Below, piece by piece: positions 1 to 30,444 of a stretch of DNA of 33,894 nt (position 1 is its first letter; each line of letters starts with the position of its first letter). Source of the stretch: Candidatus Omnitrophota bacterium (lineage in GTDB: Bacteria > Omnitrophota > Gorgyraeia > 2-01-FULL-45-10); the NCBI GenBank assembly GCA_016929115.1, contig JAFGJL010000024.1, positions 1 to 33,894 of the forward strand, read 5' to 3'. A program made the position numbers and the translations under genes. The notes beneath the pieces are model-generated. The model made no database searches and had not been told where the DNA came from. It worked only from the letters and a program-made list of their open reading frames with translations.

Positions 1-3000
1 GTCGCGCCGATATTGTTCCCGTCTATTCTGGCGGTATCCAGCCTGTCTTTTGTGTTATCCCAGGCAACGGCCCCGAACTCATCGCCGCCGATCCTGAATA
101 CGGCCTCCATGTCCTGCAAGGACGGGTTTTCGAATATGTAGTTGATGAGGGCCTTGAAATTATCGTTACCCCTGAAGATGCCGTCGCGCTCCGATATGTT
201 CTTTGACCTGTAGAGGACCATCTTCATTATGAGCGCCCTCCTGGCCACTTCAACATCCGCAGCCACGCCTCGGGCCAGCGCATCTTGATAATTTTTGATC
301 AATATTTCATAGGTATTGGCGGCGTCATATTGTTCATGTATGGGGGCATGGACGCCGGCATATTCATTGCTTAATCCGTAACGCTCGTCGAGCTCGTATT
401 CCTTGCGCGCCTTATCCGAATAGACGCCAAGGCCGCTTTGCCGCCTGACCTTCGCGCCGCTCTCATCCGTAAGGCTTAAAAGTTTTTTCATCTCCTCCCC
501 AGCCCTGCCCGCATCGCCTTTCATGGCCGCTTCCAGAAAGCTCTTATAGTAAGGGCTGAACCTAAGCTGGACGGCCTTCGCCACTTTCGAGGCTTGCCCT
601 CCCAGCTCGTCCGCCAATGCCGGCGCCTTTTCAGGCGAGGTTGCGCTGGTTGTGACTTCGGACAACCCTCCGTACATGTTTACCATATCGATGCCTATCT
701 CCTTAAGCATGCGCTCATAGACTTGAGGAGCAACTTCCTTGTCAAGATACGGCAGGATAGTCTCGCCAACGTCTTTTATTACCGCACGCTTGAATGCCAG
801 GTCCTCCTCGGTCTTTGGGTCGATGACCCTGTTGAGCGCCTTCTGGATACCCTGCTTTTGAGCTTCCGTGCTCACGCCCTTGAATATAAGGAAATATTCG
901 GGCCCCATATTATAGACCTCGCAAGTCACGCCCGGTGCCTCGCGCGCCAAGGCCCGATTGAAATGCTCCTGGAACAAGCGGCCTATGACATCAAGGGCCG
1001 CATCGCCCAGCGCGTGGCTGCCGACGCCGAGCCTCTTGCCCATATCGTTAAAATCGCCCTTAAAGTTCTGTATCTTGAAATAACCGACCTGGACCCCTTT
1101 CGAGCGCTGCAGGGCAGCGACCAACCTCTCTTCATACGCATCCCTGTTGTCGAGCGCTCCCGGCGCCCTCCTAGACTGGAACGCCAGTCTCTCGATGCCC
1201 TTCGCCAGCTTGGCTTCATTCGCTTTTTCTTCAGGCGTGAGCTGCCGCACCGCTGCCGTGTCCATGACCACAAGGGTTGTGTCGTCCTCCGACCTTGGCC
1301 CGCGCAGCAGCCGCGCCATCTCAGCGATGCCCGCGCCTTTCTTTATCGCATCCGAGGCTTTTTGCTCAAAGGCTTCGTCAGCGTCGACGGGCAATATCTG
1401 TCCGGTATTCTCATCCACCTTGTGGAACAGGGCGCTCTCAAATCTGCCGTCCTTTTCGTTCCAGACCCTGGCAGGAGCTTCGGAAAGCCCGTCGCTGAAA
1501 AGGACGGCGTAGCGGGCGTTCCTGCTGATCACGACGCTTGCCCTCTTCGGAGATAGCTTTGTAAGCGGGCCGAGGCCGACACCTACGGTCGCATTGTCCA
1601 CCTTCGTCGGACTGTCAAGCATCTTCCCCTTGTCATCCATTATCATGACATTATGGCTGCCGGCGGAAAGGCGATAGGCTGTACCTGTTGCGGCATCGAC
1701 GATGACAATGGTATATGTCATGAAGTCGGCTATTGACCTGTTGGTCTTTTGGGTGAACGCAAGCGCGGCCTCCTGGAGGCAGCCGTAATAATCCATCAGC
1801 GCTTGCGATACCATCCTCTCGTCGCCCTTGGCCTCGGCTATGGCGTCCATCAGCGTCTTTTTGTACTTTGCCTCGAATATAGCGGGTGCGTTGATATCCC
1901 TGTAGGCATCCTTATATTCCTTTATCCCGCCTTTATATTTTGCTTTTTCTTCGGCGGGAAGGTTATTGAACGCCTCGACAAGGTCACTTACGACCACAAG
2001 CCACGGCGAAGCCATTATCCCGTGCCCCATGGCGTCAGCTATCTGCATGACGGTGAACCGCCCGTCCGAGGTTCTTTCCTGCCTGTGCCAGTCGCCGCCG
2101 ATGCCCTGCAGCTGTTTGTGATATACGCCGATACCGGGGACTACCCTCTCGAGCGCTTTTTGCATCGCTTCCTGATGCGCCATCGATTGGTTATCGGTGA
2201 TCTCCAGCAGTTCGTTGGCGCTAGCGATATCGCCGTTGTCGAAGAAAAATACGCGAGCCTGCATCATTTCGGTCCGTTCGGTGCTCGTTAATTTCGCGCC
2301 TCGCTTTACCCTCGCTTTGTCGAGGGCTGCGTACGCGTCCATGGCGCCTTCAAGGTATCCGCCGAACGTCTTGTAGGCCAGTAAGTTCCCCAGGTCCCTC
2401 ATGCCATCGTTAAAGGATATGCCGGCGTTGCGCATAAGCCTGGCCGCGTATAGGGCGTCGCGGCTCAACTGGGCGGTTTCGAATTCTTTTCCTGTCTGCC
2501 CTGAGAGCTCGTGCGAAAGCTCATGCACGAGGCCCATGCTGAGCACGATCCTCCTCGTCTCTCTTTTCGCTATCCTTGTGATAGCCCTGTTCACGCCTAT
2601 AAAACCGTTATAGAGGTGGTCTTCAAACATATGGGTGGAGGAATCCAGCATGGTCATGACCAGCGTGGGAGGCAGCCTGTTTATGTCGCCTTCTTTACCA
2701 AGCCTTGCCAGGGCTTCGGAGATAAGGTTGCCCACATCCTCTTCGGATAATTGCAATTCCTCGTCGACCACTACTTTCAGCGGCCGCTTATTGACCGTAG
2801 GCATTATCTCGAGCGCTATTCCCGCCGCTTTCAGGCGCTCGCCGAAGGTCTCCACGCCTGCAGGGTCCTTGAATTCCGCTTTTATACGCCTGCCTAACAC
2901 CACCTTCTCCGACTCGCGCCCCGCGCCTGTCTTCAGCTCCATCGCTTCGGCATGGGCGACGGGCCCTGTGGGCGGTGTGAAAAGGACAAGCTCCTCGGCT

Positions 3001-6000
3001 TTGCTGTAGGGAATGCCTTGCTCGGCCATCATCCTTAATATGGACGCATAAGGGGCTATATCTTTTCTGACCTGCAGTATCGTCGTGCCGCCCTTTTCGC
3101 GTTTCAGGGCCTTCTCCTCCGCCTCTCGCGCGAAGAAGTCGTTTATCCCTTCGCGCACCGCGCTTATAACCAAGTTGTTCAGCTCATTATCGTTCTCGTC
3201 CGTGTAAAATCCGTCCCCCACGTACATCCTGCGCAACTGCTCCATCAGGACTTCCAGCGTTGAGCGTTGGGCCATGCCGAGGTCGACATACTGGACAGGC
3301 TCTCCCATAGCCCGGGCGTTTTCCCTTCGCACAAGGTTCTTTCCGTATAGGTCCGAGATGGAGACGCCCTTATCGTTATCGAATGTCAGGAGCCAGCCCC
3401 TGATAACTGTCTTGACGGCATCGCGGTACGCCGCCTTTCTCTGTTGCGGGTCGGAGATCTCATCCAAAGCTACGCCGTCAAGGAATTCGCCGAAGGAAAA
3501 GGCACCTATCCGGTTATCGCTTAACTGGTTGTAGAAACTTCGCGGATCCCCCTTGTCGCGTTCCGCATCCGCGAACTCCTTGGCGCTTACCATACCCTTA
3601 ACGAAAATGGCGACACCATCCAGCTCGCGGAAGTCCCTAAACTGCTTCACCTCTTTATCAGCTATCTCTGCTATGCTAGGCTGCTCCCGCTCGAAAGCAT
3701 GGTAGCCGGGCGTCCTGTAGACACGCAAGCCGAACACCGCGGGTTTTCCATCGACCATAGCTTCAACCCGAAAAACGTCTTTCTCCGCGCCGCTGCGTAT
3801 GTATGAAACGCGGGTGACGACGATCGTGCCCGCGAGCGGATATAACGCCTTTATCCCCTGCGTGCCCTGCACCTCGCTGCCGATAAGCTGCCGTATAATC
3901 GCCTCGTATTGTGAGTTATTGATCTTTCTTGTGACGCCATCCTCTTTGAGCTCGAATTTGACGACTGGATCCAGGCGGACAGGTTGAGCGCCTTGAGACG
4001 GCATTGCCGCAGCCTGCATGTAATCCCGCATGGTCGCGCGCCGTTCGGCCCGGGCCATGGCCCAGACGGGCTTATCCAGCATGGCAGCGGCTCCATCGAG
4101 TGGTGGAAGCTCGTTGCCCGGCTTCCAGCTTTCCGCTGCCTCGGCTATGAAATGGTCGCCGGTGATACCTGCGACGGCCTCATGCACTATGAGATCGGCT
4201 ATTTTCTTGGCGTCCGAAGCGTACTTAGCATTGATATGTATGCCCTGTCCGCCGGCGTGGGCGTCAAAAACCGCGTTGCCCACATCCACCAGATTTATAT
4301 CCAGTTCGCCGCTCTGGACCTGCCGCGCGATCTCGTTCAATTTATCGGCGTTTACCCGGTTCTGTCTCGAGAGCGCCCCCGCCATTGCCCGGATACGCTT
4401 CGCGGCTTCTGCGCGCATCGCGGCATCTACTGCTATCGCCTTTCCTGCCCGATACGCCTCCCTTATAGGCCTATCGATGTCGACCTGATGGACGCGATCG
4501 ACCAGACGGGCAAGTGACATAGTAACAGTCTTTCCACTATCCCCGAACATAAGCATTTTTCCGTCGGGAAGCGTAATCCGCACCGTTCGCCCCTTTACGA
4601 GTTGCCTTTGCACATATATTGCCGCCCGGAATGCGATTATCTTGTTATCGCCCCAGACCGGGGCCATGGCAGTCGATAACATGCTTGCAACCTGTATAGA
4701 TGACATGGAAGCGATAGCGCGATAGAGATCGCCCGTCATATCGCTTTCCGTACCGGCTAACAGGCTGAAATAGGGACACACATATCCTTCTTCGCTCCTG
4801 AAAGTTGGTACTATCGATATATAAGATATGTTGCTCTTCCTGAAGAGGTCGCAAAGGTTTTCCGTGTGAAATCCGCCCGTGACGATGATGGCGGCCTTGA
4901 GCTTTTCGCCACCAAATATTATATTTCGTAGGAACGCATCATCTCTCTTGAACGAGTAGTCATAAAATGAACCTATCTTCTCGATATATACGTTGATGGA
5001 TGTAATATCGTTGTCAAGCTTGGCCTGGATAGAGTATTTCGGAGCTTCGCGGTCGACAAAACGGATGTAGTTATTTATGTCAAAACGGTCCTTGTGCGCG
5101 AGGTAGTATTTATAATCGTCACGCGTGATTTTTATTTCAAAGATGTTCTTCATTATTATAAGGTCTTTGCATAGCTCGGCAAGATGGCGCTGCGTATCGT
5201 TCTCGCAGAGGGACTGCCGTACGGCCTCCTCAAGCCGGGCCATCTCGTCGTTAAGAGCGGCTTTATCGATCATCTCATACATGGAAACGTAGCCGATATA
5301 GGCATTCAGTTTCGGGTAATCCTTAATATTAGCCTCTACCCCCCTAGCCTTCTTTATAAGATAAAGATAGAATTCGCTCGGGCCCAGCCTTCCTTCCTTG
5401 AACTCGAGCGTCATCGCCATGAGCTCTTTTAGGTCCTTCTTCGACATGGACTTCTGGAGCTTATCGATGAGGGCGTCTCGCTCGATGTCGGCCTTCTTGA
5501 AATTTATGAACTTCTCCCTGTCCAGCGCCTGTTTGAGCTGGCCTATAGCGGGGAATGACCCAAGCGTCACGCCTTTCTTGTCGGCGTACCCCAGTAGGGT
5601 CTCAAGATAATCCTTGAACTCCATACCCTGTTCCTTATAGGCATTATGGGCGATGTCAAAATCGATGAGATCCTTTGAGTATATCCTGGGCTTCAGGTTG
5701 GTCAATATGTGGCGAAGCGACTGCAGCCACTTGTCGACCTTTGTTTTATAGGCCAGGGAATCCCTGTAGACAGCCAGGTTATCCAGGTAAAGATCGGGGT
5801 CTTCCACGCCCCAGAGCTTTACTTTGCCCGGGTTGTTGACGGCAAAGGACTCGCCACCGTTCAAAAGGCCTTCTTTAACGAAATAGTCTGTCACCTTTGC
5901 CCGGTCTTTGGGGTCTCTTATCTCCGTAAATAACGAAAGATCATATTCCCCTGAGCCGCCCTCGAGGTTTACCGACTCGATCCCGTATTCGTTCGCAAAA

Positions 6001-6335
6001 TAACCAACCAGATCAGAGATACTACGCTGCGCATAATAGTTGCAATGGGCATCTTGTATCTGAATGACGATCTTCCTGCCGGTTCCCATGAACGAATCTT
6101 TGACGTAGCCCAGGTATGCAGGCACCACGATCGCCTCGAGGCGCGATTCTCCGGATGGGCCTGAGCCGCCAGAACTAGCGGAGCTGACGCGAGAAAGCTC
6201 CGGCACTGTCCTGGCAGCCCAGGCTATGTCATATGATGCCTGACTAAACAAAAAAGCCACCAAGGTAAACGCTGTAACCAGCGTTTTTAGTGGCTTTTTG
6301 TATATGGATATCCAAGATCTCGCGTCTAATCTCAT
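1..6335 (-). CDS. Giant multidomain exported signalling protein (partial, C-terminus outside window)
   Basis: One frame stays open for 2,111 codons from the ATG at 6335 to the window edge. Start chosen because GGAGG lies 5 nt upstream; an in-frame ATG 12 nt earlier lacks such a site. Residues 1-38 form a signal peptide or anchor (hydrophobic 18-35). Residues about 88-515 resemble TraB/ChaN/Tiki proteins (D95, H97, E125, H490 in TGGFHT). H718-E719 and H728 lie in an HEAVAG-type motif. Residues about 800-1060 look like a degenerate protein kinase: D995-L-Y-G-K-N1000 as catalytic loop and D1018 in VDLG as the DFG equivalent. HELSH at 1271-1275 is an HExxH zinc motif. Residues about 1395-1690 are a SpoIIE/PP2C phosphatase (GGD 1413-1415, D1434 in DAMGHG, D1615 in FSDGLSEA, D1684/D1685). 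A degenerate GGDEF (MGPEYF, 1810-1815) precedes an intact RIGGDEF (2083-2087) without an RxxD inhibitory site. Domain motifs are seen; overall function is unknown. Confidence 0.85.
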   Translation of the reverse strand, partial: MRLDARSWISIYKKPLKTLVTAFTLVAFLFSQASYDIAWAARTVPELSRVSSASSGGSGPSGESRLEAIVVPAYLGYVKDSFMGTGRKIVIQIQDAHCNYYAQRSISDLVGYFANEYGIESVNLEGGSGEYDLSLFTEIRDPKDRAKVTDYFVKEGLLNGGESFAVNNPGKVKLWGVEDPDLYLDNLAVYRDSLAYKTKVDKWLQSLRHILTNLKPRIYSKDLIDFDIAHNAYKEQGMEFKDYLETLLGYADKKGVTLGSFPAIGQLKQALDREKFINFKKADIERDALIDKLQKSMSKKDLKELMAMTLEFKEGRLGPSEFYLYLIKKARGVEANIKDYPKLNAYIGYVSMYEMIDKAALNDEMARLEEAVRQSLCENDTQRHLAELCKDLIIMKNIFEIKITRDDYKYYLAHKDRFDINNYIRFVDREAPKYSIQAKLDNDITSINVYIEKIGSFYDYSFKRDDAFLRNIIFGGEKLKAAIIVTGGFHTENLCDLFRKSNISYISIVPTFRSEEGYVCPYFSLLAGTESDMTGDLYRAIASMSSIQVASMLSTAMAPVWGDNKIIAFRAAIYVQRQLVKGRTVRITLPDGKMLMFGDSGKTVTMSLARLVDRVHQVDIDRPIREAYRAGKAIAVDAAMRAEAAKRIRAMAGALSRQNRVNADKLNEIARQVQSGELDINLVDVGNAVFDAHAGGQGIHINAKYASDAKKIADLIVHEAVAGITGDHFIAEAAESWKPGNELPPLDGAAAMLDKPVWAMARAERRATMRDYMQAAAMPSQGAQPVRLDPVVKFELKEDGVTRKINNSQYEAIIRQLIGSEVQGTQGIKALYPLAGTIVVTRVSYIRSGAEKDVFRVEAMVDGKPAVFGLRVYRTPGYHAFEREQPSIAEIADKEVKQFRDFRELDGVAIFVKGMVSAKEFADAERDKGDPRSFYNQLSDNRIGAFSFGEFLDGVALDEISDPQQRKAAYRDAVKTVIRGWLLTFDNDKGVSISDLYGKNLVRRENARAMGEPVQYVDLGMAQRSTLEVLMEQLRRMYVGDGFYTDENDNELNNLVISAVREGINDFFAREAEEKALKREKGGTTILQVRKDIAPYASILRMMAEQGIPYSKAEELVLFTPPTGPVAHAEAMELKTGAGRESEKVVLGRRIKAEFKDPAGVETFGERLKAAGIALEIMPTVNKRPLKVVVDEELQLSEEDVGNLISEALARLGKEGDINRLPPTLVMTMLDSSTHMFEDHLYNGFIGVNRAITRIAKRETRRIVLSMGLVHELSHELSGQTGKEFETAQLSRDALYAARLMRNAGISFNDGMRDLGNLLAYKTFGGYLEGAMDAYAALDKARVKRGAKLTSTERTEMMQARVFFFDNGDIASANELLEITDNQSMAHQEAMQKALERVVPGIGVYHKQLQGIGGDWHRQERTSDGRFTVMQIADAMGHGIMASPWLVVVSDLVEAFNNLPAEEKAKYKGGIKEYKDAYRDINAPAIFEAKYKKTLMDAIAEAKGDERMVSQALMDYYGCLQEAALAFTQKTNRSIADFMTYTIVIVDAATGTAYRLSAGSHNVMIMDDKGKMLDSPTKVDNATVGVGLGPLTKLSPKRASVVISRNARYAVLFSDGLSEAPARVWNEKDGRFESALFHKVDENTGQILPVDADEAFEQKASDAIKKGAGIAEMARLLRGPRSEDDTTLVVMDTAAVRQLTPEEKANEAKLAKGIERLAFQSRRAPGALDNRDAYEERLVAALQRSKGVQVGYFKIQNFKGDFNDMGKRLGVGSHALGDAALDVIGRLFQEHFNRALAREAPGVTCEVYNMGPEYFLIFKGVSTEAQKQGIQKALNRVIDPKTEEDLAFKRAVIKDVGETILPYLDKEVAPQVYERMLKEIGIDMVNMYGGLSEVTTSATSPEKAPALADELGGQASKVAKAVQLRFSPYYKSFLEAAMKGDAGRAGEEMKKLLSLTDESGAKVRRQSGLGVYSDKARKEYELDERYGLSNEYAGVHAPIHEQYDAANTYEILIKNYQDALARGVAADVEVARRALIMKMVLYRSKNISERDGIFRGNDNFKALINYIFENPSLQDMEAVFRIGGDEFGAVAWDNTKDRLDTARIDGNNIGA
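6250..6299 (-). terminator. Intrinsic-terminator-like hairpin inside the 5' coding region of the giant gene
   Basis: A 10-bp perfect outer stem (6251-6260 with 6290-6299, AAAAAGCCAC/GTGGCTTTTT) encloses an 8-bp inner stem (6267-6274 with 6279-6286) with a 4-nt loop. On the minus-strand transcript it ends in six U. It starts about 34 nt after the first base of the start codon and encodes part of the hydrophobic signal segment. Structure seen; a role in premature termination or attenuation is inferred. Confidence 0.6.
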
Positions 6336-6340
6336 CTTGG

Positions 6341-6345
6341 CCTCC
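6341..6345 (-). promoter_or_regulatory. Ribosome binding site deciding the start of the giant gene
   Basis: GGAGG on the minus strand, 5 nt before the ATG at 6335. An in-frame ATG at 6347 overlaps this site and has no comparable sequence upstream, so 6335 is preferred. Confidence 0.6.
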
Positions 6346-9208: not shown

Positions 9209-10012
9209 TTATACGTGTTTCGTCAGAAAACGGGAAATCGGACCCTCGTTCCACTTTCTTCTGGGACGCGGCCGGTAGCACAGGCCCCTAAGGACCAACA
9301 CAAGATTATTCTCGTCGAGATTGCGCGTTAGCTTGCCGCCCGCCGATACGGATATCGCGCCGTTCTCTTCGCTCACTACGACACACACAGCGTCAGTGTC
9401 TTCGCTTAAGCCCATGGCCGCTCTGTGGCGCATACCAAGCGACCTCGAGAGGCCCCTCATGTCCGGCGTAAGCGGCAAGAGGCATCCCGCCGCTACGATC
9501 CTGCCGGACCGGATGATGATGGCCCCGTCATGCAGGACGGTCTGCGGCATAAATATCGACGTTATGAGCTCTTCGCTCACCTTGCTGTCAATGGGCACCC
9601 CAGTCTCTATATAGGTCTTTAAACCGACCTGCCGCTCTATGGCTATCAGGGCCCCGGTCTTCTGCTTCGAAAGTTTCAGGGCGGCGCGGGATATCTCTTC
9701 GATAACCTCAAGGGCACCGCGGTGCATCCCGAACTGTCCCAACCGCTCCAATCCCCGCCTCATCTCCGGCTGGAAGATGATAAGAAGCGCTATGACCGAG
9801 ATCGGTAATAGCCGCGTCAGGACCCACTCGATCGTCTCCAGCCCAAGCTGCTTAGTGGTGATGATTATAGCGACGATAATTATGATGCCCTTTAAAAGCT
9901 GTTCGGTGCGCGTCCCCTTTATAAAGAGAAAGACCATGTAGATGAAATACCACAACAGAAAGATCTCGAGGACGGGTTTCCAGTAAGCCAGATATGGGAT
10001 AATAAGTTGCAT
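9209..10012 (-). CDS. cdaA: Membrane diadenylate cyclase (c-di-AMP synthase)
   Basis: Makes cyclic di-AMP from two ATP. The 267-aa protein has three N-terminal membrane segments (about 10-30, 40-58, 65-82) and then a DAC domain with both signature motifs: DGA at 162-164 (LHDGAIIIR) and RHR at 195-197 (GMRHRAAMGLSE). This is the CdaA/DacA architecture. In Firmicutes the operon is cdaA-cdaR-glmM; here folP precedes it (6-nt gap) and cdaR then pdxJ follow, with no glmM. c-di-AMP typically governs potassium and osmotic balance and wall homeostasis. Confidence 0.95.
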   Translation of the reverse strand: MQLIIPYLAYWKPVLEIFLLWYFIYMVFLFIKGTRTEQLLKGIIIIVAIIITTKQLGLETIEWVLTRLLPISVIALLIIFQPEMRRGLERLGQFGMHRGALEVIEEISRAALKLSKQKTGALIAIERQVGLKTYIETGVPIDSKVSEELITSIFMPQTVLHDGAIIIRSGRIVAAGCLLPLTPDMRGLSRSLGMRHRAAMGLSEDTDAVCVVVSEENGAISVSAGGKLTRNLDENNLVLVLRGLCYRPRPRRKWNEGPISRFLTKHV

Positions 10013-14333: not shown

Positions 14334-15194
14334 TCACTCAGCCTCTTCTTTTGGCGCAGGCGCCGCCCCGGCGCCAAGATCGATCTTCTTTATCTCGGAC
14401 TTCTTGATGGCCATAAGGGCTTCGCCCTTGTCGATCCGGACCTTTAGCACGATCGCATCATCGGTCTCCCGTATGATCTCGCCTTTATACATGGCGCCTG
14501 ATTTCAGGTATACCGTTGAGGCGTTGGGATCCTCAACGGGCGTTAACGTGACCTGCGCGGATTTGATGTTGAGGGTAAAATAGCCGCTGAATAGGCGCGC
14601 GCCTGATAAGGCAACGACGCCCACCAGCCCCAGGAGACACGTCACAAGCAAAAACCGCCGCAGGTTGGATATGACAATGCCGTTATAGGTAATCGACCTG
14701 CCGCGGCCGTGTTTCTTAGCGACATACATGGCCTTGTCGGCTTTCGCAAGAAGGTCATCCATCGTCTCGCCGTTGTCAGGACAGGTGGCTACGCCGCCCG
14801 AGAAGCTCATCTTGAAGAGGCGCCCCTTAAGCAGGAACTCCCTGTTCCTTATGTTCTTCTGAAGCATGCCAGCGATCACACCGACTTCCTTCGACCTCTT
14901 GTCCGGGAATACGATGACGAACTCGTCCCCGCCGAAACGGACGATGGCGCAGTCGAGGCCTTCAAGGCCGAGGCGCAGGCTGCTCGCGAAATATTTAAGG
15001 ACCTCATCCCCGCTCAAGTGGCCGTACTTGTCGTTGAAAGACTTGAAATGGTCGATGTCAAGAAGAAGGATCGACCAAGGCTTATTGGACGCCTTGTAAT
15101 CGGCTTTAAGCCGGTAAAAAAGCGGCGTCAACGCTTCTTTCAAATAGCACTTAGTCAGGAAATCGAGTTTTGCGTTGGCCAGTTCTTCAAGCAT
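14334..15194 (-). CDS. Diguanylate cyclase with C-terminal membrane anchor and extra beta domain
   Basis: Predicted to make cyclic di-GMP. The 286-aa protein opens directly with a GGDEF domain (DFLTKCYLKEAL at 11-22, LLDIDHFKSFND at 44-55, RFGGDEF with GGDEF at 88-92, ADKAMYVAKKHGR at 152-164). There is no RxxD inhibitory site five residues before GGDEF, so product inhibition is not expected. A membrane segment follows (about 181-199), then roughly 85 residues including VYLKSGAMYKGEIIRETDD, a small beta-rich stretch of unknown role, and an Ala/Pro/Glu tail. The order enzyme-membrane-outer domain is the reverse of the usual sensor-first layout. AGGAGG stands 4 nt before the ATG. Confidence 0.9.
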   Translation of the reverse strand: MLEELANAKLDFLTKCYLKEALTPLFYRLKADYKASNKPWSILLLDIDHFKSFNDKYGHLSGDEVLKYFASSLRLGLEGLDCAIVRFGGDEFVIVFPDKRSKEVGVIAGMLQKNIRNREFLLKGRLFKMSFSGGVATCPDNGETMDDLLAKADKAMYVAKKHGRGRSITYNGIVISNLRRFLLVTCLLGLVGVVALSGARLFSGYFTLNIKSAQVTLTPVEDPNASTVYLKSGAMYKGEIIRETDDAIVLKVRIDKGEALMAIKKSEIKKIDLGAGAAPAPKEEAE

Positions 15195-24402: not shown

Positions 24403-25171
24403 ATGTTTCCCTCACTTGAGATTTCATCGCCTTTTGGAATATCGCCTCGACCTCCGACCTCAGGGCCGCGTCATACAGGTTGAATATCGACCTGCCTGAA
24501 ACGCTTAAGCTTGCCAGCCTCTCGTCGAACGGTATGGCGCCGCCGAGCTCAAGACCGCTGGCGTCCACCTCCAGTTGCAAAGCGCCGATGTCACCGGTCA
24601 GCTTGTTCACCACAAGATACGTCTCGCCCAGGTCTATGCCCATCTCCCTGGCAAGGTCGTAGATCTTCTTTGCCGAGCGCACTCCGAAGACGGAGTAATC
24701 GCTCACCAGAAGAAGCTTGTCGATGCGCCTCATCGTCCTGCGCGATATATGTTCCATGCCCGCGGCGTTATCTATGATGACCAGGTCGTAGTTCTTCGTT
24801 ATCTTCGATATGATACCGCGCAGGAGGTTGTTGACGTAGCAATAGCAGCCCGGGCCTTCCGGGCGGCCCATCGTAAGGAGGTCGAACCCCTTCGCCTCTT
24901 CGCTGACCGCCTCCTGGACCTTCATCTCGATGAACCTGTCCTTGGTGATGCCGGACGGCAGTTTATCAAGGTGTTTCTGGACGTCCTCGACGATCCCGAC
25001 GATCGACGGCGCGTCCTTGACGCCGAGCAGTTCCGGAAGGTTCGAGTTCGGGTCCGCGTCGATAGCCAGCACCGACCCGCCCTTCTTCGCGCAGACATAC
25101 TCCACCAGGAGAGCCGCGAGCGTGCTCTTCCCCGTGCCGCCTTTGCCGTTCACCGCTATAATCGTACCGAT
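24371..25171 (-). CDS. cooC: CooC-type nickel-insertion ATPase for CODH/ACS; probable AUC start
   Basis: A MinD/SIMIBI-class ATPase that assists metal-centre maturation of CO dehydrogenase or acetyl-CoA synthase. It has the deviant Walker A KGGTGKST, IDADPNSNL and the CxC motif GPGCYCYVNN, which in CooC binds nickel at the dimer interface. The first canonical start in frame is GTG at 25153, which would remove the first beta strand (TIIAV) and leaves GGGGAGG 23 nt away. An AUC at 25169-25171 lies 5 nt after GGGGAGG and gives an N-terminus of normal CooC form, so I place the start there. If only canonical starts are accepted, use 25153 (260 aa). It overlaps acsV by 16 nt. Confidence 0.88.
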   Translation of the reverse strand: MGTIIAVNGKGGTGKSTLAALLVEYVCAKKGGSVLAIDADPNSNLPELLGVKDAPSIVGIVEDVQKHLDKLPSGITKDRFIEMKVQEAVSEEAKGFDLLTMGRPEGPGCYCYVNNLLRGIISKITKNYDLVIIDNAAGMEHISRRTMRRIDKLLLVSDYSVFGVRSAKKIYDLAREMGIDLGETYLVVNKLTGDIGALQLEVDASGLELGGAIPFDERLASLSVSGRSIFNLYDAALRSEVEAIFQKAMKSQVRETYGHRAGKGKI

Positions 25172-27048
25172 GGGAACCTCCCCATGTCAGTGTGCGGGAA
25201 AAAGAGTGAGGCGATATATTCGTCCATATACCGCGGCTCGGAGCTCAGGTCGAGATATGTTATCCCCTTATGTATCTCGTGCGTCTTCAGGAACGCCTCG
25301 CGCGACAGGAGCGAAAGACGCGCGCCGGCGAGCGAGGAGTTGCCTATATAGGCATACAACTTCCGGTCGATATCGGGCAGAAGCCCTATAGAAACGGCGC
25401 TCTCCACATTGATATAGCTGCCGAACCCGCCGGCGATGTATATCCTCTTTAAGTCCTCGGCCTTCTTGCCGACCTTGTCAAGCAGCGAGATGATGGCGCT
25501 GTATATAGCCCCCTTCGCCCTCTTCAGGTTCTCGATATCGTCCTCGGTGATCACGATATCCTTGCCGACGGCGCTCTCGTCCTTAAAGGCCACGACGAAC
25601 TCGTAGCCATATTCGTTCTTCCTTATCCTTTTTGAGGCGAGGCCGCGGTCTATCTTGCCGTTTCGCGCTATTATCTTCCGTTTAGCCATCTGGAAAAGAA
25701 GGTCTATATAACCGGACCCGCATATCCCGCGCGGCTTATCGCTGCCTATCGTCTCGCAGGCGACGCCGAGCTTTTCATCGATCGAGACCTTCTGGATGGC
25801 GCCCTTCACCGCCTTCATCCCGAAAGCGAGGCCGCTTCCCTCGAACGCCGGGCCGGCGCTCGCCGCGGCTCCGATCATCCACTCCTTGTTGCCCAGGACT
25901 ATCTCGCCGTTCGTCCCGATATCGATTAGGAGCGCGAGATCTTCCTCTTTATACAGGCCGCTCGAGAGCACGCCCGCCACGATATCCCCTCCCACATATG
26001 TGGCGACTCCAGGCACCGAGAAGAACAAGCCCTTAGGGTTAAGCTCGATCCCCACCTCCGAGATGGGCGTCGTGGGAAAGGCTGTTACGGTCGCCACATA
26101 AGGCTCTTTGCGGATATGCGTAGGGTCGATCTTCAGCAAAAGGTGCATCATCGTCACGTTGCCCGCGCACAGGACCGCTCCGACTGTCGCCAGGTTGATC
26201 TCGCAGGCCTCTGCCATGTCCTCGACCATCTCGTCTATGTTGCTCACGATGGCCTCGCTCAGTTTTTCAAGGCCCTCGGGCGTCGAGCCGTAGATGATGC
26301 GTGTTATGATGTCCGAACCGTATCCGGCCTGCCGGTTATACGCTATACGCGTGGCCAGCACCTTCTTCGAATGCAGATCGATGAGCTCGCCCGTCACGGT
26401 AGTGGTGCCTATATCGAAGGCAAAGCCGTAATTGAGCCTTGTAGTGTCGCCGGGCTCCAGGGCGAGTATCTCGAACGCCCCGTCCTTATAGCCGACCGTG
26501 GCGGTCACCTTGAAATCGCTTTCCCTGAGGACGTCGCCCAGATGCTTGACGTTCGCGAGGTGGGTCGAGACGGACATGGTCTTGAACCTGTCCTCAAGAG
26601 CTTTGTAGATCCTGCCAAGGTCGCTTATGCTGTCCTCATGCGTAGGCCTGTCAAGCTCGAGGTATATCTTCTCGACCATCGGCGCGTGCTTGAACGGCAG
26701 GTCTTCTTCCGGAAGCATGTCCGGAGCGCATTCTTCCGACTCGGCTGTGAGGTGGGGGTGCGTCTCGATCGATTCCTGCGGGATGAAGACCTCGAGGTCG
26801 CTCTCGACTATCGATTCGCAGGCGAGTACGACGCCTTTTTTGCGCTCCTCCTCGCTCACGAGCCGCGACCGCTCGCTCTTGACCGCTCCCTTCCTGACCA
26901 CCACCTTGCATTTGCCGCAGAGCCCTTCGCCGCCGCATGACGCGCTTAAGAATATCCCCGCGCGCAGGCACGCCGTAAGGAGGTCCGTACCCCGCGGCAC
27001 TATCACGTGCTTATTGTGCGGCTCAAAAGTGACTACGAATTCGCTCAT
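25156..27048 (-). CDS. acsV: Reductive activator of the corrinoid iron-sulfur protein (RACo/AcsV)
   Basis: Uses ATP to re-reduce inactive Co(II) of the AcsC/AcsD corrinoid to Co(I). The 630 aa are normal for RACo. An N-terminal plant-type [2Fe-2S] domain has cysteines C38, C44, C47 and C77 (C-x5-C-x2-C-x29-C). A linker and a large ASKHA-like ATPase domain follow (FAFDIGTTTVTGELIDL, LLIDIGTNGEIVLG, GICGSGYIDLLFQMAK, RIYIAGGFGSYI). The start overlaps the acsC stop by 4 nt. Confidence 0.95.
   Translation of the reverse strand: MSEFVVTFEPHNKHVIVPRGTDLLTACLRAGIFLSASCGGEGLCGKCKVVVRKGAVKSERSRLVSEEERKKGVVLACESIVESDLEVFIPQESIETHPHLTAESEECAPDMLPEEDLPFKHAPMVEKIYLELDRPTHEDSISDLGRIYKALEDRFKTMSVSTHLANVKHLGDVLRESDFKVTATVGYKDGAFEILALEPGDTTRLNYGFAFDIGTTTVTGELIDLHSKKVLATRIAYNRQAGYGSDIITRIIYGSTPEGLEKLSEAIVSNIDEMVEDMAEACEINLATVGAVLCAGNVTMMHLLLKIDPTHIRKEPYVATVTAFPTTPISEVGIELNPKGLFFSVPGVATYVGGDIVAGVLSSGLYKEEDLALLIDIGTNGEIVLGNKEWMIGAAASAGPAFEGSGLAFGMKAVKGAIQKVSIDEKLGVACETIGSDKPRGICGSGYIDLLFQMAKRKIIARNGKIDRGLASKRIRKNEYGYEFVVAFKDESAVGKDIVITEDDIENLKRAKGAIYSAIISLLDKVGKKAEDLKRIYIAGGFGSYINVESAVSIGLLPDIDRKLYAYIGNSSLAGARLSLLSREAFLKTHEIHKGITYLDLSSEPRYMDEYIASLFFPHTDMGRFPSVRL
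25177..25183 (-). promoter_or_regulatory. Strong ribosome binding site pointing to a non-AUG start of cooC
   Basis: GGGGAGG on the minus strand lies 5 nt before AUC at 25171 and 23 nt before the first GTG. No ATG, GTG or TTG in the cooC frame lies between the site and that GTG. Confidence 0.6.
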
Positions 27049-28379
27049 TTCCAGTTTCTCAGGAACACAGGTATCCCCGACGCCTCGCGCGGGCCGACGC
27101 TCACCTTCCAGCCCGACACCTCTTCAAGCTTGCCGCTGAGGACAGAGACGTAGCCGGGTATGATGACGCGCTTGTGCGCGACCATCGTCTCGATGCCGCT
27201 CTTCTTGAGCGTATCGGCTATCTTCTCGGCCGTGAACTTCTCGGCCGCCCAGGCGGTCAGGACCGACATCCCCTCGGAATCGCAGCAGACTATATAGGTA
27301 GGGACCTTGCTCGCCTCGATCTCTCCCGCCACCGTAAAGTAGGTGATGGAGAAGTTCGTTGTCACCGCCACCGGCGAATCCTTTGTCACCTTCCCGACCT
27401 CATAGATCTTCGGCTCCACCTGTACCGGCTTCTGGGGGTCCGCGTAGATATCCTGACGGGCCACGAGAAGCGGCAGCATGAAATCCTTTTCGACGCACTT
27501 CACCATGATGAGCGAAGTGTATTTCATCACATAGGTGATCGCCTCGGCAAGCTCAAGGTCAGCGCCGTCAGTGCCTGTGAACGCCATGATCGGGTATCCG
27601 AGGGGCCTGAAGCTCTTCTTCAGCGCGGTGCGCCGCGCGAACGTAAAGTCCTGTATATGCCGGGCAAGTCCTTCCCTGCCCAGATTGATGACGATCTCCT
27701 CCACGCCGGACTTCTTTATCCTGTCGGTAAGCTGCGCCGCTTCCTCGAGGTTCGCGCAGCTTACGGCAAGCGGCGCGTTGTTCTCCTTGGCGAGCTTCAC
27801 GAACGCGTCGAGCCTGCCCGCCTCGGCGCCGATTATGAGCGGCCTGCGCCCCGTGCACGCCTTTATGGCCTCCGTGATGGCCGCAGCGTCGTTACTGTAC
27901 AGAGCCAGGTTCATCTGCGATGAGGACGCGACTTGCCTCACCACCCTGGAGAACTGGTTCTTGTCGTGCGAGGAGTTCCTTATACATAGAAGGTCGGGCG
28001 CTATCTTTTGCCCGACGCGCTCAAAACTCAGGGCGTTTATCTTCGCTACGCGGTCGGCGAGCTCCGCCTCAGTGAGCGTATCGTCGATGAGTATGCCTAT
28101 CCCCGCCGGATGGTAGAACTTCTGCTCGTGCCGATACATGACGGTCTCGTTGCCCATCTCGAGCTTGTTTTCGCCGCTCCCGATGGTCACGAGCTTGATC
28201 GGCGGCTGGCTCGCGCTCTCAAGAGCCTCCTTCGCCTGCGCGCTGACGTGCGGGCACTTGTCAAGCGACGCCTTCTTCTGGGCAAGCGCCATGGCAAAGG
28301 CAAGGCACGTCGCGAACCCGCAGTCCTTGCAGTTCGTCTTCGGCAGCAGCTTGTATATATCTAACCCCGTCAACGCCAT
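27045..28379 (-). CDS. acsC: CODH/ACS complex corrinoid iron-sulfur protein large (gamma) subunit
   Basis: Carries the B12 cofactor and a [4Fe-4S] cluster and delivers methyl groups to AcsB. The 444-aa protein opens with the cluster domain: C17, C20, C25 and C42 (TNCKDCGFATCLAFA...DKCP). A TIM-barrel middle (YHPAGIGILIDDTL, MNLALYSNDAAAI, EEIVINLGREGL) and a C-terminal B12-binding region (YFTVAGEIEASKVPTYIVCCDSEG) follow. GGAGG is 8 nt before the ATG. The left end of the acsB-acsC island starts only about 20 nt upstream, so its promoter situation differs from that of a contiguous acs operon. Confidence 0.96.
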   Translation of the reverse strand: MALTGLDIYKLLPKTNCKDCGFATCLAFAMALAQKKASLDKCPHVSAQAKEALESASQPPIKLVTIGSGENKLEMGNETVMYRHEQKFYHPAGIGILIDDTLTEAELADRVAKINALSFERVGQKIAPDLLCIRNSSHDKNQFSRVVRQVASSSQMNLALYSNDAAAITEAIKACTGRRPLIIGAEAGRLDAFVKLAKENNAPLAVSCANLEEAAQLTDRIKKSGVEEIVINLGREGLARHIQDFTFARRTALKKSFRPLGYPIMAFTGTDGADLELAEAITYVMKYTSLIMVKCVEKDFMLPLLVARQDIYADPQKPVQVEPKIYEVGKVTKDSPVAVTTNFSITYFTVAGEIEASKVPTYIVCCDSEGMSVLTAWAAEKFTAEKIADTLKKSGIETMVAHKRVIIPGYVSVLSGKLEEVSGWKVSVGPREASGIPVFLRNWK

Positions 28380-28400
28380 AACTCTTTCCTCCCGTCATCG

Positions 28401-28467
28401 CGGGAAAAATAGGGACTGTCCTAAAAATGCCTATTTCGTATTGAATGGGACTGTCCCATTTTTCCCC
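28401..28467. repeat. Left border of the island: paired GGGACTGTCCC-type repeats
   Basis: Two inverted copies of a GGAAAAAT-GGGACTGTCC element (cores near 28411-28421 and 28446-28456). The stretch AAAATAGGGACTGTCC (28406-28421) is the exact reverse complement of 30417-30432 at the other end of the island. Confidence 0.65.
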
Positions 28468-28514
28468 GAACCTATCGTAATGACCCGAAACTCCATTAGC
28501 ACATCAAAGGCCGT

Positions 28515-28664
28515 GCAGCCATGGGGGTCTCGCTAATTTTTCTCTCAAGGATTTCCAGCATTAGTGGTATTGCCACCCAGTGCTGGTCCTACACAATCTC
28601 CTACCTTATATCTTTCGGGTATCGCAACCTTAGAAAAATTTTACGCTGCGACCCCCATGGCTGC
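28515..28664. other. Long structured non-coding element (possible ncRNA or MITE-like unit)
   Basis: The outer arms GCAGCCATGGGGGTC (28515-28529) and GACCCCCATGGCTGC (28650-28664) pair perfectly over 15 bp. A second pair AATTTTTCT/AGAAAAATT (28535-28543 with 28632-28640) lies inside. Within the loop CCAGCA/TGCTGG (28555-28560 with 28581-28586) encloses GTGG/CCAC. No convincing coding frame crosses it. It occupies most of the 407-nt gap between acsC and the PIN gene; I see nothing else there beyond the border repeats. Confidence 0.55.
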
Positions 28665-28786
28665 CCGGCCTTCGACCCTTACCGAGCGCCACAGCTTCCT
28701 GTGCAACCTTCTAAAATTGGTGCCAATGCTCCTCTCAAACTCGTGGCGGCATCCAACCATACATAAACAACCCGCTTTAAGAACTC

Positions 28787-29389
28787 TTATTGTAGCAAAC
28801 TCATAATTTCTCGCAGGCAGTCACTTGGAGATACAGCCTTCACATGATACATATTCCAGATAGTATCCGCCTTGCTGAGTATGTGCTTTTTATCACATGT
28901 GACGAAAAAAGAATATTCTCTATTTTTTTGCGCATTAAATATATTTCGCACATCTATTTTGTCTCCTCTTGTTAGTTGCATCTTTTGAGGAAACAATACG
29001 TTTTTGATTTCCTTAATTTTCAATATTTCATTGATAGTACTAACTGCATCGTCTGAAACGATCCTGTCTTTGACCCAATCCTTTAACAATAACGGCACCT
29101 TTTTCATTTCTTCTTCTGTCCCTTGAGTAATTTCTAGCTTGTTTATTTTTTCTTCTTTCTCAAGACTTCGTAATTGCTCCATTGCTTTTTTGTCGCACGC
29201 TTCCGGTGGATAAATAGCACACGAATCAACGAGCATAAAAATATCATCTATGGTAATGTCCATGTCATCATTCATTTTTAGCCTTGCTTCAATTTGTGCT
29301 ATCACCTCGTCATCTCTATATTTATATTTGGGGAGACCCTGCAAGGTAGGGTATCCGTCTATGGGGCGGTCCCAAACTCCTCCGAGCAA
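28787..29389 (-). CDS. PIN-domain-like protein (putative ribonuclease)
   Basis: Up to 200 aa. A PIN-like pattern is visible: a first acidic residue in FMLVDSCAIYPPE, then DKIDVRNIFNAQKNREYSFFVTCDKKHIL and the closing HVKAVSPSDCLREI, like the VapC-type nuclease core with its last Asp in TCDK. No antitoxin-like gene is adjacent. The start is uncertain: TTG at 29389 has no good Shine-Dalgarno, while ATG at 29275 (162 aa) has AAGG 6 nt upstream and retains the whole PIN core. AT-rich composition unlike the acs genes; part of the island. Confidence 0.6.
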   Translation of the reverse strand: MLGGVWDRPIDGYPTLQGLPKYKYRDDEVIAQIEARLKMNDDMDITIDDIFMLVDSCAIYPPEACDKKAMEQLRSLEKEEKINKLEITQGTEEEMKKVPLLLKDWVKDRIVSDDAVSTINEILKIKEIKNVLFPQKMQLTRGDKIDVRNIFNAQKNREYSFFVTCDKKHILSKADTIWNMYHVKAVSPSDCLREIMSLLQ

Positions 29390-29408
29390 ACCGTATTTTA
29401 TTACACAG

Positions 29409-29849
29409 CTATTTATCTATTTTATATTGTTGCTGTCCATATTTATCTGTAAAAGTTGTAGAGCTTCCATCATCTCTAACCTGCCCAATATAATTCCCGC
29501 TTCTACCATATACATTTCGGGTTGTTGGCATTGACAAATAAGATGCAGTATACTTTTGTTGGCTAAGCATTAGCTGTTGATGATAAGCTTGTTGTGTATT
29601 AACAGCACCGGAAACTGTATTGCAGGCGCTTCCCGCCATCCAGCGTAGATTTTGCCAAAATGTTCGAGATGAATTTCTGCTTTTTAACTCTTGTCGCAAA
29701 ATGTCGAGCGCTACAGCTCTTACACCTACCAATCTCTTTTCTTTCTCCGATAAAGTCTTTTTTAGCTTTTCTAGTGACTCAGCATTGGGACCAAGTGGCA
29801 ATTTTTCAGCGAGGAAATTTCCTATATTTATAATTTCTTGGTCGCTCAT
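29409..29849 (-). CDS. Hypothetical protein with a Gly/Tyr-rich C-terminal tail
   Basis: A 146-aa protein from the ATG at 29849; GTG at 29858 and ATG at 29942 are alternatives, the latter overlapping the preceding gene in a poorly protein-like stretch. The first half is a charged helical region (FLAEKLPLGPNAESLEKLKKTLSEKEK type). The second half ends in RSGNYIGQVRDDGSSTTFTDKYGQQQ, a YD/G-repeat-like tail seen in surface proteins. No signal peptide in this frame. No family recognised. Lies in the AT-rich island, 19 nt before the PIN gene frame. Confidence 0.5.
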   Translation of the reverse strand: MSDQEIINIGNFLAEKLPLGPNAESLEKLKKTLSEKEKRLVGVRAVALDILRQELKSRNSSRTFWQNLRWMAGSACNTVSGAVNTQQAYHQQLMLSQQKYTASYLSMPTTRNVYGRSGNYIGQVRDDGSSTTFTDKYGQQQYKIDK

Positions 29850-29881
29850 TTTTTTCACATCAATTTTTTGATACTCAAGTT

Positions 29882-30124
29882 TTAGTACTCCAGACTTTTT
29901 AATAACGTCGTGAGATTTTCTTTTTTTGCAACTTGCATACATTCGTTAAGGGCTATATTCTTCGCTATTTCATCTCCTCGCGTTTCAACCTCAAGACCAG
30001 AGGTGGCATTCATCGATTTTATTAATTCTTCGTCATTCTTTTTTTCAATAACGTCTTTTACGCTTTCTGCATAAACTAATGATGATATTTGCAATAAAAC
30101 CAATAGTACTATTATTTTTTTCAT
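29882..30124 (-). CDS. Small exported protein of unknown function
   Basis: An 80-aa protein with a clear signal peptide (MKKIIVLLVLLQISSLVYA, cleavage predicted before ESV) and a short charged mature part. GGGGAGG lies 8 nt before the ATG at 30124. The frame is open 73 codons further upstream, but that stretch is structured repeat DNA, so it is not included. First gene of the island; function unknown. Confidence 0.6.
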   Translation of the reverse strand: MKKIIVLLVLLQISSLVYAESVKDVIEKKNDEELIKSMNATSGLEVETRGDEIAKNIALNECMQVAKKENLTTLLKSLEY

Positions 30125-30202
30125 TTTAATGACCTCCCCTTCAATCACCCGTCCGTCTACGCGTCGAGCGTGATAATTTCTTTTAGAGTGCAGTGATGCT
30201 CT

Positions 30203-30312
30203 GGCGCCGTATAGCCCCGAAGGGCGGGGCGCCTGACGCGACGTAAAAATCGCGAGGTTACAACGAACCGAGCGATTTTTCCGAGCGAGATTTCCCTCTG
30301 GAAAATCGAGCG
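30203..30312. other. Structured repeat segment with a terminator-like hairpin, downstream of acsB
   Basis: Three hairpins in a row: GGCGCC (30203-30208) with GGCGCC (30228-30233) over GCCCC/GGGGC; AAAAATCGC (30245-30253) with GCGATTTTT (30272-30280) plus GGTT/AACC inside; and an imperfect GATTTCC/GGAAAATC arm near 30288-30307. The middle one has a U5 end on either strand. The 320-nt gap 30125-30444 holds these, the right border repeats and no supported gene. Confidence 0.55.
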
Positions 30313-30383
30313 GTCGCGGAAGGTGCCCTGCCCTTCGGGACACATTCAGCGAAGACGGAAAATGTTAAAGAGCCGGCAAGATT

Positions 30384-30432
30384 GGGACAGTCCCCACCAC
30401 AACTTTGAGGCTCCGGGGACAGTCCCTATTTT
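30384..30432. repeat. Right border of the island: GGGACAGTCCC-type repeats
   Basis: Two cores, TTGGGACAGTCCCC (30383-30396 region) and GGACAGTCCCTATTTT (30417-30432). The second is the exact reverse complement of 28406-28421. It ends 12 nt downstream of the acsB stop. Confidence 0.65.
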
Positions 30433-30444
30433 GTCCGCCTCGCC

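What the first reader, a model, noticed from the sequence alone, without database searches (positions are those of the whole stretch)
1..6335. Signal-anchored giant protein joining ChaN-like, kinase-like, HExxH, PP2C and GGDEF modules
More than 2,111 codons without a stop, N-terminal export signal, then motifs of a TraB/ChaN-like domain, a kinase-type D-x4-N loop plus a DFG-like aspartate, HELSH, a full SpoIIE phosphatase set and an intact GGDEF. Kinase-like, phosphatase and cyclase modules in one exported chain are unusual. If it is really outside the cytoplasm, ATP or GTP supply is a puzzle, so topology or substrates may be unconventional.
Basis: partly seen in the sequence, partly recalled or inferred. 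Interest (0 to 1): 0.85.

Follow-up and report, generated by a model that had tools for sequence, protein, structure and literature searches.

The report
Head-and-tail modular giant protein, truncated
The window starts inside the gene for a huge exported protein of an uncultured Omnitrophota bacterium; it belongs to a family in which one conserved front end (a hydrolase-like domain) and one conserved back end enclose a changing assortment of signalling-type enzyme domains, and why a cell would export such enzymes is an open, testable question.

Summary
The reading frame is real: minus strand, ATG at 6335 behind GGAGG, at least 2,111 codons, cut by the contig edge (window = whole contig). It belongs to a large modular family in Omnitrophota. 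A near-constant head (signal peptide ending AWA|A plus a ~490-residue TIKI/ChaN/erythromycin-esterase-type domain; 73/73 relatives keep DxH, E 28 residues later, and GGFH) is followed by shuffled modules and, in complete relatives, a constant C-terminal tail ending ID..I..W...VL.SL. That tail is missing here and not found in the assembly. A complete 5,014-residue relative from another family combines head, HExxH, atypical kinase, two canonical kinases and tail, so misassembly is unlikely. Giant Omnitrophota proteins are known; I found no description of this head-plus-tail design. Function is inferred: an exported multi-enzyme protein, possibly acting on another cell.

The parts
6216..6335 (-). 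Start codon (6335-6333) and Sec-type signal peptide, residues 5-44 of P0001, predicted cleavage AWA|A; GGAGG ribosome site at 6341-6345
   Evidence: Sequence; the pattern K.PxK..ITLxAFLFN...DxAWA|A recurs in most of 83 head-bearing ORFs
4713..6170 (-). Constant head: TIKI/ChaN/Ere-like alpha/beta domain with a long helical insertion (aa 60-545); D99-x-H101, E129, GGFH 491-494
   Evidence: 73-row alignment with these residues invariant; AlphaFold2 mean pLDDT 92.2; bridged to Pfam PF04187; Foldseek top hits include 3b55, EreC and HopBA1 but none significant
4068..4280 (-). Linker module with conserved HAGGQGI...IVHE..AG...DH..AE motif (aa ~690-760), function unknown
   Evidence: Recurs after the head in about 25-35 loci
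3123..3905 (-). Atypical protein-kinase-like domain (aa ~815-1075): SGAEKDVFRV glycine loop, Arg instead of beta3 Lys (GLR), D999-x4-N1004, VDLG
   Evidence: Six relatives in 384 genomes; profile-profile match to canonical kinases P=7e-5 with negative controls at or below 1.1% probability; three-strand N-lobe pattern in a low-confidence model
2388..2960 (-). HExxH module (aa ~1130-1320), HELSHE at 2525-2508, gluzincin-like
   Evidence: 19 of 21 homologues keep HExxH; model core pLDDT 75-92 resembles M1 aminopeptidases and selecase, Foldseek probability mostly 0.9-1.0, E 0.01-0.08
1260..2099 (-). SpoIIE-type PP2C phosphatase (aa 1417-1696): GGDW, DAMGHG, SAGSH, SDGLSE, EDDTTLVV all present
   Evidence: Pfam PF07228 E 5.1e-8, above cut-off; motif positions
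543..1184 (-). GGDEF-like domain 1, normal order, degenerate signature (IQNFKG...GSHALGD...YNMGPEYF), aa ~1722-1935
   Evidence: Alignment with five relatives; PDB profile match to a GGDEF structure 3icl, weak
3..230 (-). GGDEF-like domain 2, cut by the contig end: RIGGDEF signature (95-75) lies before the beta1-like segment RIDGNN (29-12)
   Evidence: In two complete relatives the post-signature segment matches canonical beta1/alpha1 (9-10.6 bits, shuffled controls at most 2.5), and the family profile matches DosC 4zve in swapped order

Best explanation
This is the 5' part of a gene for a modular giant protein of a family found in Omnitrophota. SHOWN: the family has a constant N-terminus (signal peptide plus TIKI/ChaN/Ere-type head with an invariant D-x-H, E, H active-site set), a constant C-terminal tail in complete members, and an interior built from interchangeable modules; here these are an HE-motif linker, an atypical kinase-like domain, a gluzincin-like HExxH domain, an intact SpoIIE/PP2C phosphatase and a GGDEF-derived module whose cyclase activity is doubtful. 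INFERRED: the protein is exported by Sec. The head, and perhaps the HExxH domain, act as hydrolases or peptidases that process the protein itself or neighbouring envelope proteins. The kinase and phosphatase modules work outside the producer's cytoplasm on phosphoproteins, most simply where another organism supplies the nucleotide, that is, on or in a cell it contacts. The tail probably serves a step common to all members (sorting, anchoring or processing). Confidence is about 0.9 for identity and architecture, about 0.65 for export, and about 0.35 for action on another cell.
For: Frame and signal. Head family: (419 stretches encode a relative; the 79 loci kept are all Omnitrophota). TIKI link. 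The H-to-E spacing is 28 here (H101, E129), as in RRSP (His3902/Glu3930) and Bcr135 (His85/Glu113) per PMC6254334. Module shuffling. Tail: (19/24 held-out head ORFs versus 4/308 others; two of the four are ORFs of 1,600 and 3,911 aa and two are ORF ends open at the locus edge). Complete relative L214 (5,014 aa; head E 1.7e-205, HExxH E 3e-67, atypical kinase E 1e-18, tail E 3e-32, two canonical kinases). Modules. Context: giant ORFs are common in Omnitrophota, and peptides of a V. archaeovorus giant protein rose about 3-fold in cells attached to larger cells (PMC10066038).
Against: The gene is truncated, so its own tail and the rest of its modules are unseen. Export is predicted, not shown. 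No known energy or nucleotide source exists outside the cell. No secretion system or target was identified. The kinase-like domain lacks the beta3 lysine and may be inactive. The HExxH fold match rests on six sequences and E about 0.01-0.08. The tail profile found nothing in this genome, although one closed giant here (C34) ends in a similar motif by eye. Nothing here tests action on another cell.
Confidence: 0.5

Rival explanations
1. Structural giant: an exported surface or coat protein in which the enzyme-like modules are captured domains used as bricks, mostly no longer catalytic.
For: Published giants are proposed to form a coat or adhesins (PMC10066038); GGDEF domain 1 is degenerate and domain 2 looks rearranged; the beta3 lysine is lost in the kinase-like family; interior content varies widely between relatives.
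Against: Catalytic residues are kept where the rest has diverged: head set 73/73, HExxH 19/21, D/N/D of the kinase-like family in six of seven, PP2C motifs complete, canonical kinases intact in L214. Pure bricks should lose them.
Confidence: 0.22
2. Cytoplasm-facing signalling scaffold: the N-terminal hydrophobic segment is a membrane anchor and the modules work in the producer's own cytoplasm, where ATP and GTP exist.
For: Kinase, SpoIIE phosphatase, GGDEF, HATPase, PAS and sigma-70 region 4 domains are typically cytoplasmic; no second membrane segment in P0001.
Against: Positive residues precede and an AxA site follows the hydrophobic segment (N-in/C-out, cleavable); the same AWA|A pattern is conserved in most relatives; TIKI-type heads in animals (Tiki) are extracellular by established knowledge.
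Confidence: 0.2
3. Assembly or annotation artefact that joins unrelated genes.
For: The ORF ends at a contig edge; three of the four head-bearing ORFs in this genome run off contig ends.
Against: No stop in 2,111 codons, even GC3, contiguous alignment of aa 3-771 and 22-725 to single ORFs in other genomes, and a complete relative with head, HExxH, kinase and tail inside one 128-kb contig.
Confidence: 0.03

Closest known systems
Giant ORFs of Omnitrophota/Velamenicoccia (Seymour et al. 2023, PMC10066038)
   Same: Same phylum; long single ORFs with few annotated domains; linked to cell attachment or predation
   Different: That paper calls them poorly conserved; here a conserved head, a conserved tail and identifiable modules are shown. 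This copy is only 6.3 kb long as assembled, below their 20-kb criterion
TIKI/ChaN/erythromycin-esterase superfamily (Pfam PF04187, PF05139; structures 3b55, EreC, HopBA1, RRSP)
   Same: Order of strands and His/Glu residues, 28-residue H-to-E spacing, export in Tiki
   Different: Asp replaces the first Glu of the 2His/2Glu set, a ~300-residue mostly helical stretch separates E129 from H494, no Pfam or PDB match of P0001 itself above threshold
MARTX-type multi-effector proteins (architecture only)
   Same: Constant ends around interchangeable enzyme modules; a TIKI-type enzyme can be one of them
   Different: No repeats-in-toxin or autoprocessing cysteine protease recognised, no known delivery; the TIKI domain is the head, not a cargo module. 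A likeness of plan, not of descent
SpoIIE/RsbU phosphatases
   Same: All catalytic motifs
   Different: Placed inside an exported giant instead of a cytoplasmic sensor
Diguanylate cyclases (GGDEF)
   Same: Signature letters, FK, GH and GD elements
   Different: Elements split over a degenerate domain and an apparently permuted one

Membership tests
TIKI/ChaN/Ere superfamily (head) | Sequence homology to a known member family | tested here: met
   Direct Pfam match is marginal (3 of 25 members, best E 0.009), but divergent Omnitrophota heads match both the head profile (E 2e-14 to 6e-73) and PF04187 (E 4e-4 to 1e-5)
TIKI/ChaN/Ere superfamily (head) | Catalytic (E/D)-x-H, E 28 residues later, and H on a late strand | tested here: met
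   D99-x-H101, E129, H494 invariant in 73/73; spacing as in PMC6254334; the first acid is Asp, not Glu
TIKI/ChaN/Ere superfamily (head) | Fold match | tested here: inconclusive
   Model pLDDT 92; 3b55, EreC and HopBA1 among the top hits but E 0.09-0.7; the large helical insertion dominates
SpoIIE/PP2C phosphatase | Curated family score and metal-binding motifs | tested here: met
   PF07228 33.5 bits, cut-off 25; motifs
Protein kinase (Hanks type) | Beta3 lysine, catalytic-loop D and N, DFG D | tested here: not met
   D, N and D kept, lysine replaced by Arg in all seven; no Pfam kinase match to the segment. Works-like claim only; fold support is weak
Gluzincin metallopeptidase | HExxH helix in a zincin fold with a downstream third ligand | tested here: inconclusive
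   HExxH in 19/21 and a nearly invariant downstream Asp; Foldseek probability up to 1.0 but E 0.01-0.08; no Pfam match
Diguanylate cyclase (GGDEF) | GGDEF domain with canonical order and intact signature | tested here: not met
   No Pfam match in P0001; normal-order copy degenerate, intact signature in permuted context
Omnitrophota giant ORFs | ORF longer than 20 kb | tested here: inconclusive
   At least 6.3 kb, truncated; relatives with the same head have open frames of 15 kb (L214) up to about 36 kb
Any of the above enzymes | Measured activity | not testable with these tools
   Needs protein

The most novel reading that the evidence does not exclude
Omnitrophota encode a polymorphic family of exported multi-enzyme proteins: a constant TIKI-type head and a constant C-terminal tail carry interchangeable kinase, phosphatase, peptidase and nucleotide-signalling modules to the outside, where they act on another cell's signalling proteins after processing by the head or the HExxH module. 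The GGDEF-derived module would be a circularly permuted member of that fold.
Probability: 0.25. Interest if true: 0.88.

Novelty: new variant of a known kind. Interest (0 to 1): 0.64.

Why it matters
Giant Omnitrophota proteins have been described as poorly conserved and functionally opaque. A shared head and tail give a handle: they let the whole family be found by profile, sorted into module sets and tested for location and processing. If exported kinases, phosphatases and peptidases act on other cells, they would be candidate tools of a predatory or epibiotic lifestyle in a widespread uncultured phylum. If not, the family raises the question of how signalling enzymes with signal peptides are kept supplied with nucleotide.

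Tried and rejected
Finding the missing 3' end: no overlapping contig end, no tail match, downstream homologue hits only in other proteins. Naming the head by direct Pfam, NCBIfam or PDB sequence search: nothing above threshold, solved only by intermediate sequences. FlgM-like match at 648-688 (E 0.02): below cut-off, rejected. PDB hits to centrin for the head and LINE-1 ORF1p for the HExxH module: short or helical stretches, not significant, rejected. Foldseek coiled-coil hits of the head (SMC, JetABC): due to the helical insertion, rejected. Rotating the GGDEF segments in silico did not raise the joint profile score over native order; only the separate segments match, so permutation is suggested, not proven. 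Kinase-like model too poor to call a fold. Tail versus Pfam and PDB: no family. Viral collection for the kinase-like and GGDEF modules: nothing. A large catalogue of the interior modules was not made.
Full report
OBSERVATION. The window is the whole of contig G000:C52 of a 1.50-Mb, 79-contig assembly. The finding lies on the minus strand: a frame open from 6347 to 3 (P0001, 2,115 aa). The ATG at 6335-6333 is the likely start: it follows GGAGG (6345-6341) and gives the M-x-DARS beginning seen in many relatives. The frame leaves the contig, so the 3' end is unknown. Base composition at third positions is even along the frame.

HEAD. The first ~560 residues recur at the N-terminus of large ORFs in 31 of 38 related genomes. 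A scan of 84,980 species gave 419 relatives, and all 79 loci kept are Omnitrophota. Among 73 aligned heads, Q98-D99-A100-H101, E129, E166, E182, R468-D469 and G491-G492-F493-H494 are invariant. AlphaFold2 gives pLDDT 92: DxH, E129 and H494 each follow a beta strand, with a long helical insertion before the last. Direct Pfam and PDB searches are marginal, but divergent heads of other Omnitrophota giants match both the head profile (down to 6e-73) and Pfam ChaN/TIKI (E down to 1e-5). The published TIKI catalytic set is E-x-H, then E, then H, with 28 residues between the first H and the second E in RRSP and Bcr135 (PMC6254334). The same spacing occurs here, with D for the first E. Foldseek lists 3b55 (Bcr135), EreC and HopBA1 near the top, but not significantly. 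I conclude that the head is a TIKI/Ere-type domain with an intact, slightly altered active site; its activity is untested.

EXPORT. A positively charged N-terminus, a hydrophobic stretch and AWA|A precede the head. 71 of 83 relatives have a detectable hydrophobic segment there. Giants without this head in the same genome (contig C70) carry a closely similar signal.

MODULES. Residues 560-800 carry a conserved HAGGQGI...HE...AG...DH motif of unknown function. Residues 815-1075 are kinase-like. Six relatives were found in 384 genomes. The catalytic-loop Asp and Asn and the DFG-type Asp are kept in all but one, and one relative reads DLKPAN; the beta3 Lys is Arg in every one. Profile comparison with canonical kinases from other giants gives probability 62.5%, P 7e-5, with the catalytic loops in register, against at most 1.1% for four control alignments. 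The model of this part is poor. Residues 1130-1320 keep HExxH in 19 of 21 homologues; the modelled core (pLDDT 75-92) resembles M1 aminopeptidases and selecase, Foldseek probability up to 1.0, E 0.01-0.08. Residues 1417-1696 are a SpoIIE phosphatase with all motifs.

GGDEF REGION. Residues 1722-1935 align with the normal order of a GGDEF domain but with signature YNMGPEYF. RIGGDEF at 2085 is followed, not preceded, by a beta1-like segment (RIDGNN here; RFDANNLG...N..WG..IGD in a relative). A PDB profile search independently placed these two segments on DosC in swapped order. The post-signature segment scores 9-10.6 bits on canonical beta1/alpha1 in two relatives; shuffles reach at most 2.5 there. 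Rotating the order did not add score, and in two other relatives neither piece scores. So permutation is suggested, not shown, and cyclase activity is not supported.

ARCHITECTURE. P0001's modules occur in other giants in other combinations. Interiors of relatives include methyltransferase, SLT, phosphoglucomutase, HATPase, metallophosphatase and HEAT domains. Complete relatives share a C-terminal tail: a profile trained on half of the closed head ORFs finds 19 of 24 held-out ones and 4 of 308 other ORFs at E below 0.01. Two of those four are ORFs of 1,600 and 3,911 aa, the latter being the 3' part of the head-bearing L214, and two are ORF ends open at the locus edge. The tail has no known family. 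L214, a complete 5,014-aa ORF from another family, has signal, head, HExxH module, atypical kinase, two canonical kinases with intact beta3 Lys, D-[LI]-K-P-x-N and DFG motifs, and the tail. This is the best evidence that P0001's combination is natural.

MECHANISM. Shown: homology, conserved residues and architecture. Inferred: Sec export, hydrolase activity of the head, and action outside the cell. Retention of catalytic residues in diverged modules argues against pure structural bricks. Lack of a nucleotide source outside the cell argues either for action in or on another cell, or for a cytoplasm-facing topology; the signal features favour export. Published giants of this phylum are associated with attachment (PMC10066038), which fits but does not prove contact-dependent action.

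NOVELTY. Giant Omnitrophota ORFs are known, and so is their proposed link to predation. I found no description of the constant head, constant tail and TIKI assignment in the papers I could search; the key preprint on giant genes cited by PMC12057145 is not held, so priority is unverified.

Noticed in passing
L215:9731 to L216:6567 (same assembly, contig C70, about 9731-35567): Three tandem giant ORFs (about 2,723, 3,855 and 2,036 aa), each with a YD[IL]AWA-type signal and no TIKI head detected. The first carries PEP-utilising, PAS and canonical GGDEF domains, the second GGDEF, metallophosphatase, sigma-70 region 4, HATPase and cytidylate-kinase domains.
   Followed up: partly
L169 (463-aa ORF): A stand-alone protein with a signal peptide and the same atypical kinase domain (DLKPAN, Arg for beta3 Lys): a small exported kinase-like protein that would be easier to test.
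   Followed up: partly
G127:C6 (part read as L213): An open frame of 57,099 aa around an HExxH-module match; 5,000 codons read without a stop.
   Followed up: no
L163 (IMGVR_UViG_3300045144_000334): A contig of the viral collection carries a complete 2,116-aa head-and-tail giant, 49% identical in the head; either a bacterial contig filed as viral or carriage on a mobile element.
   Followed up: no
window 14334-15194 and 9209-10012: Ordinary GGDEF protein (E 3.5e-33) and CdaA-type c-di-AMP cyclase upstream of the giant gene.
   Followed up: partly
window 25156-32661: RACo-type activator and CO dehydrogenase/acetyl-CoA synthase subunit genes, a Wood-Ljungdahl cluster.
   Followed up: no
L083, L029, L121: Several head-bearing giants have another ORF ending in a tail-like motif just upstream, hinting at tandem giant genes.
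   Followed up: no
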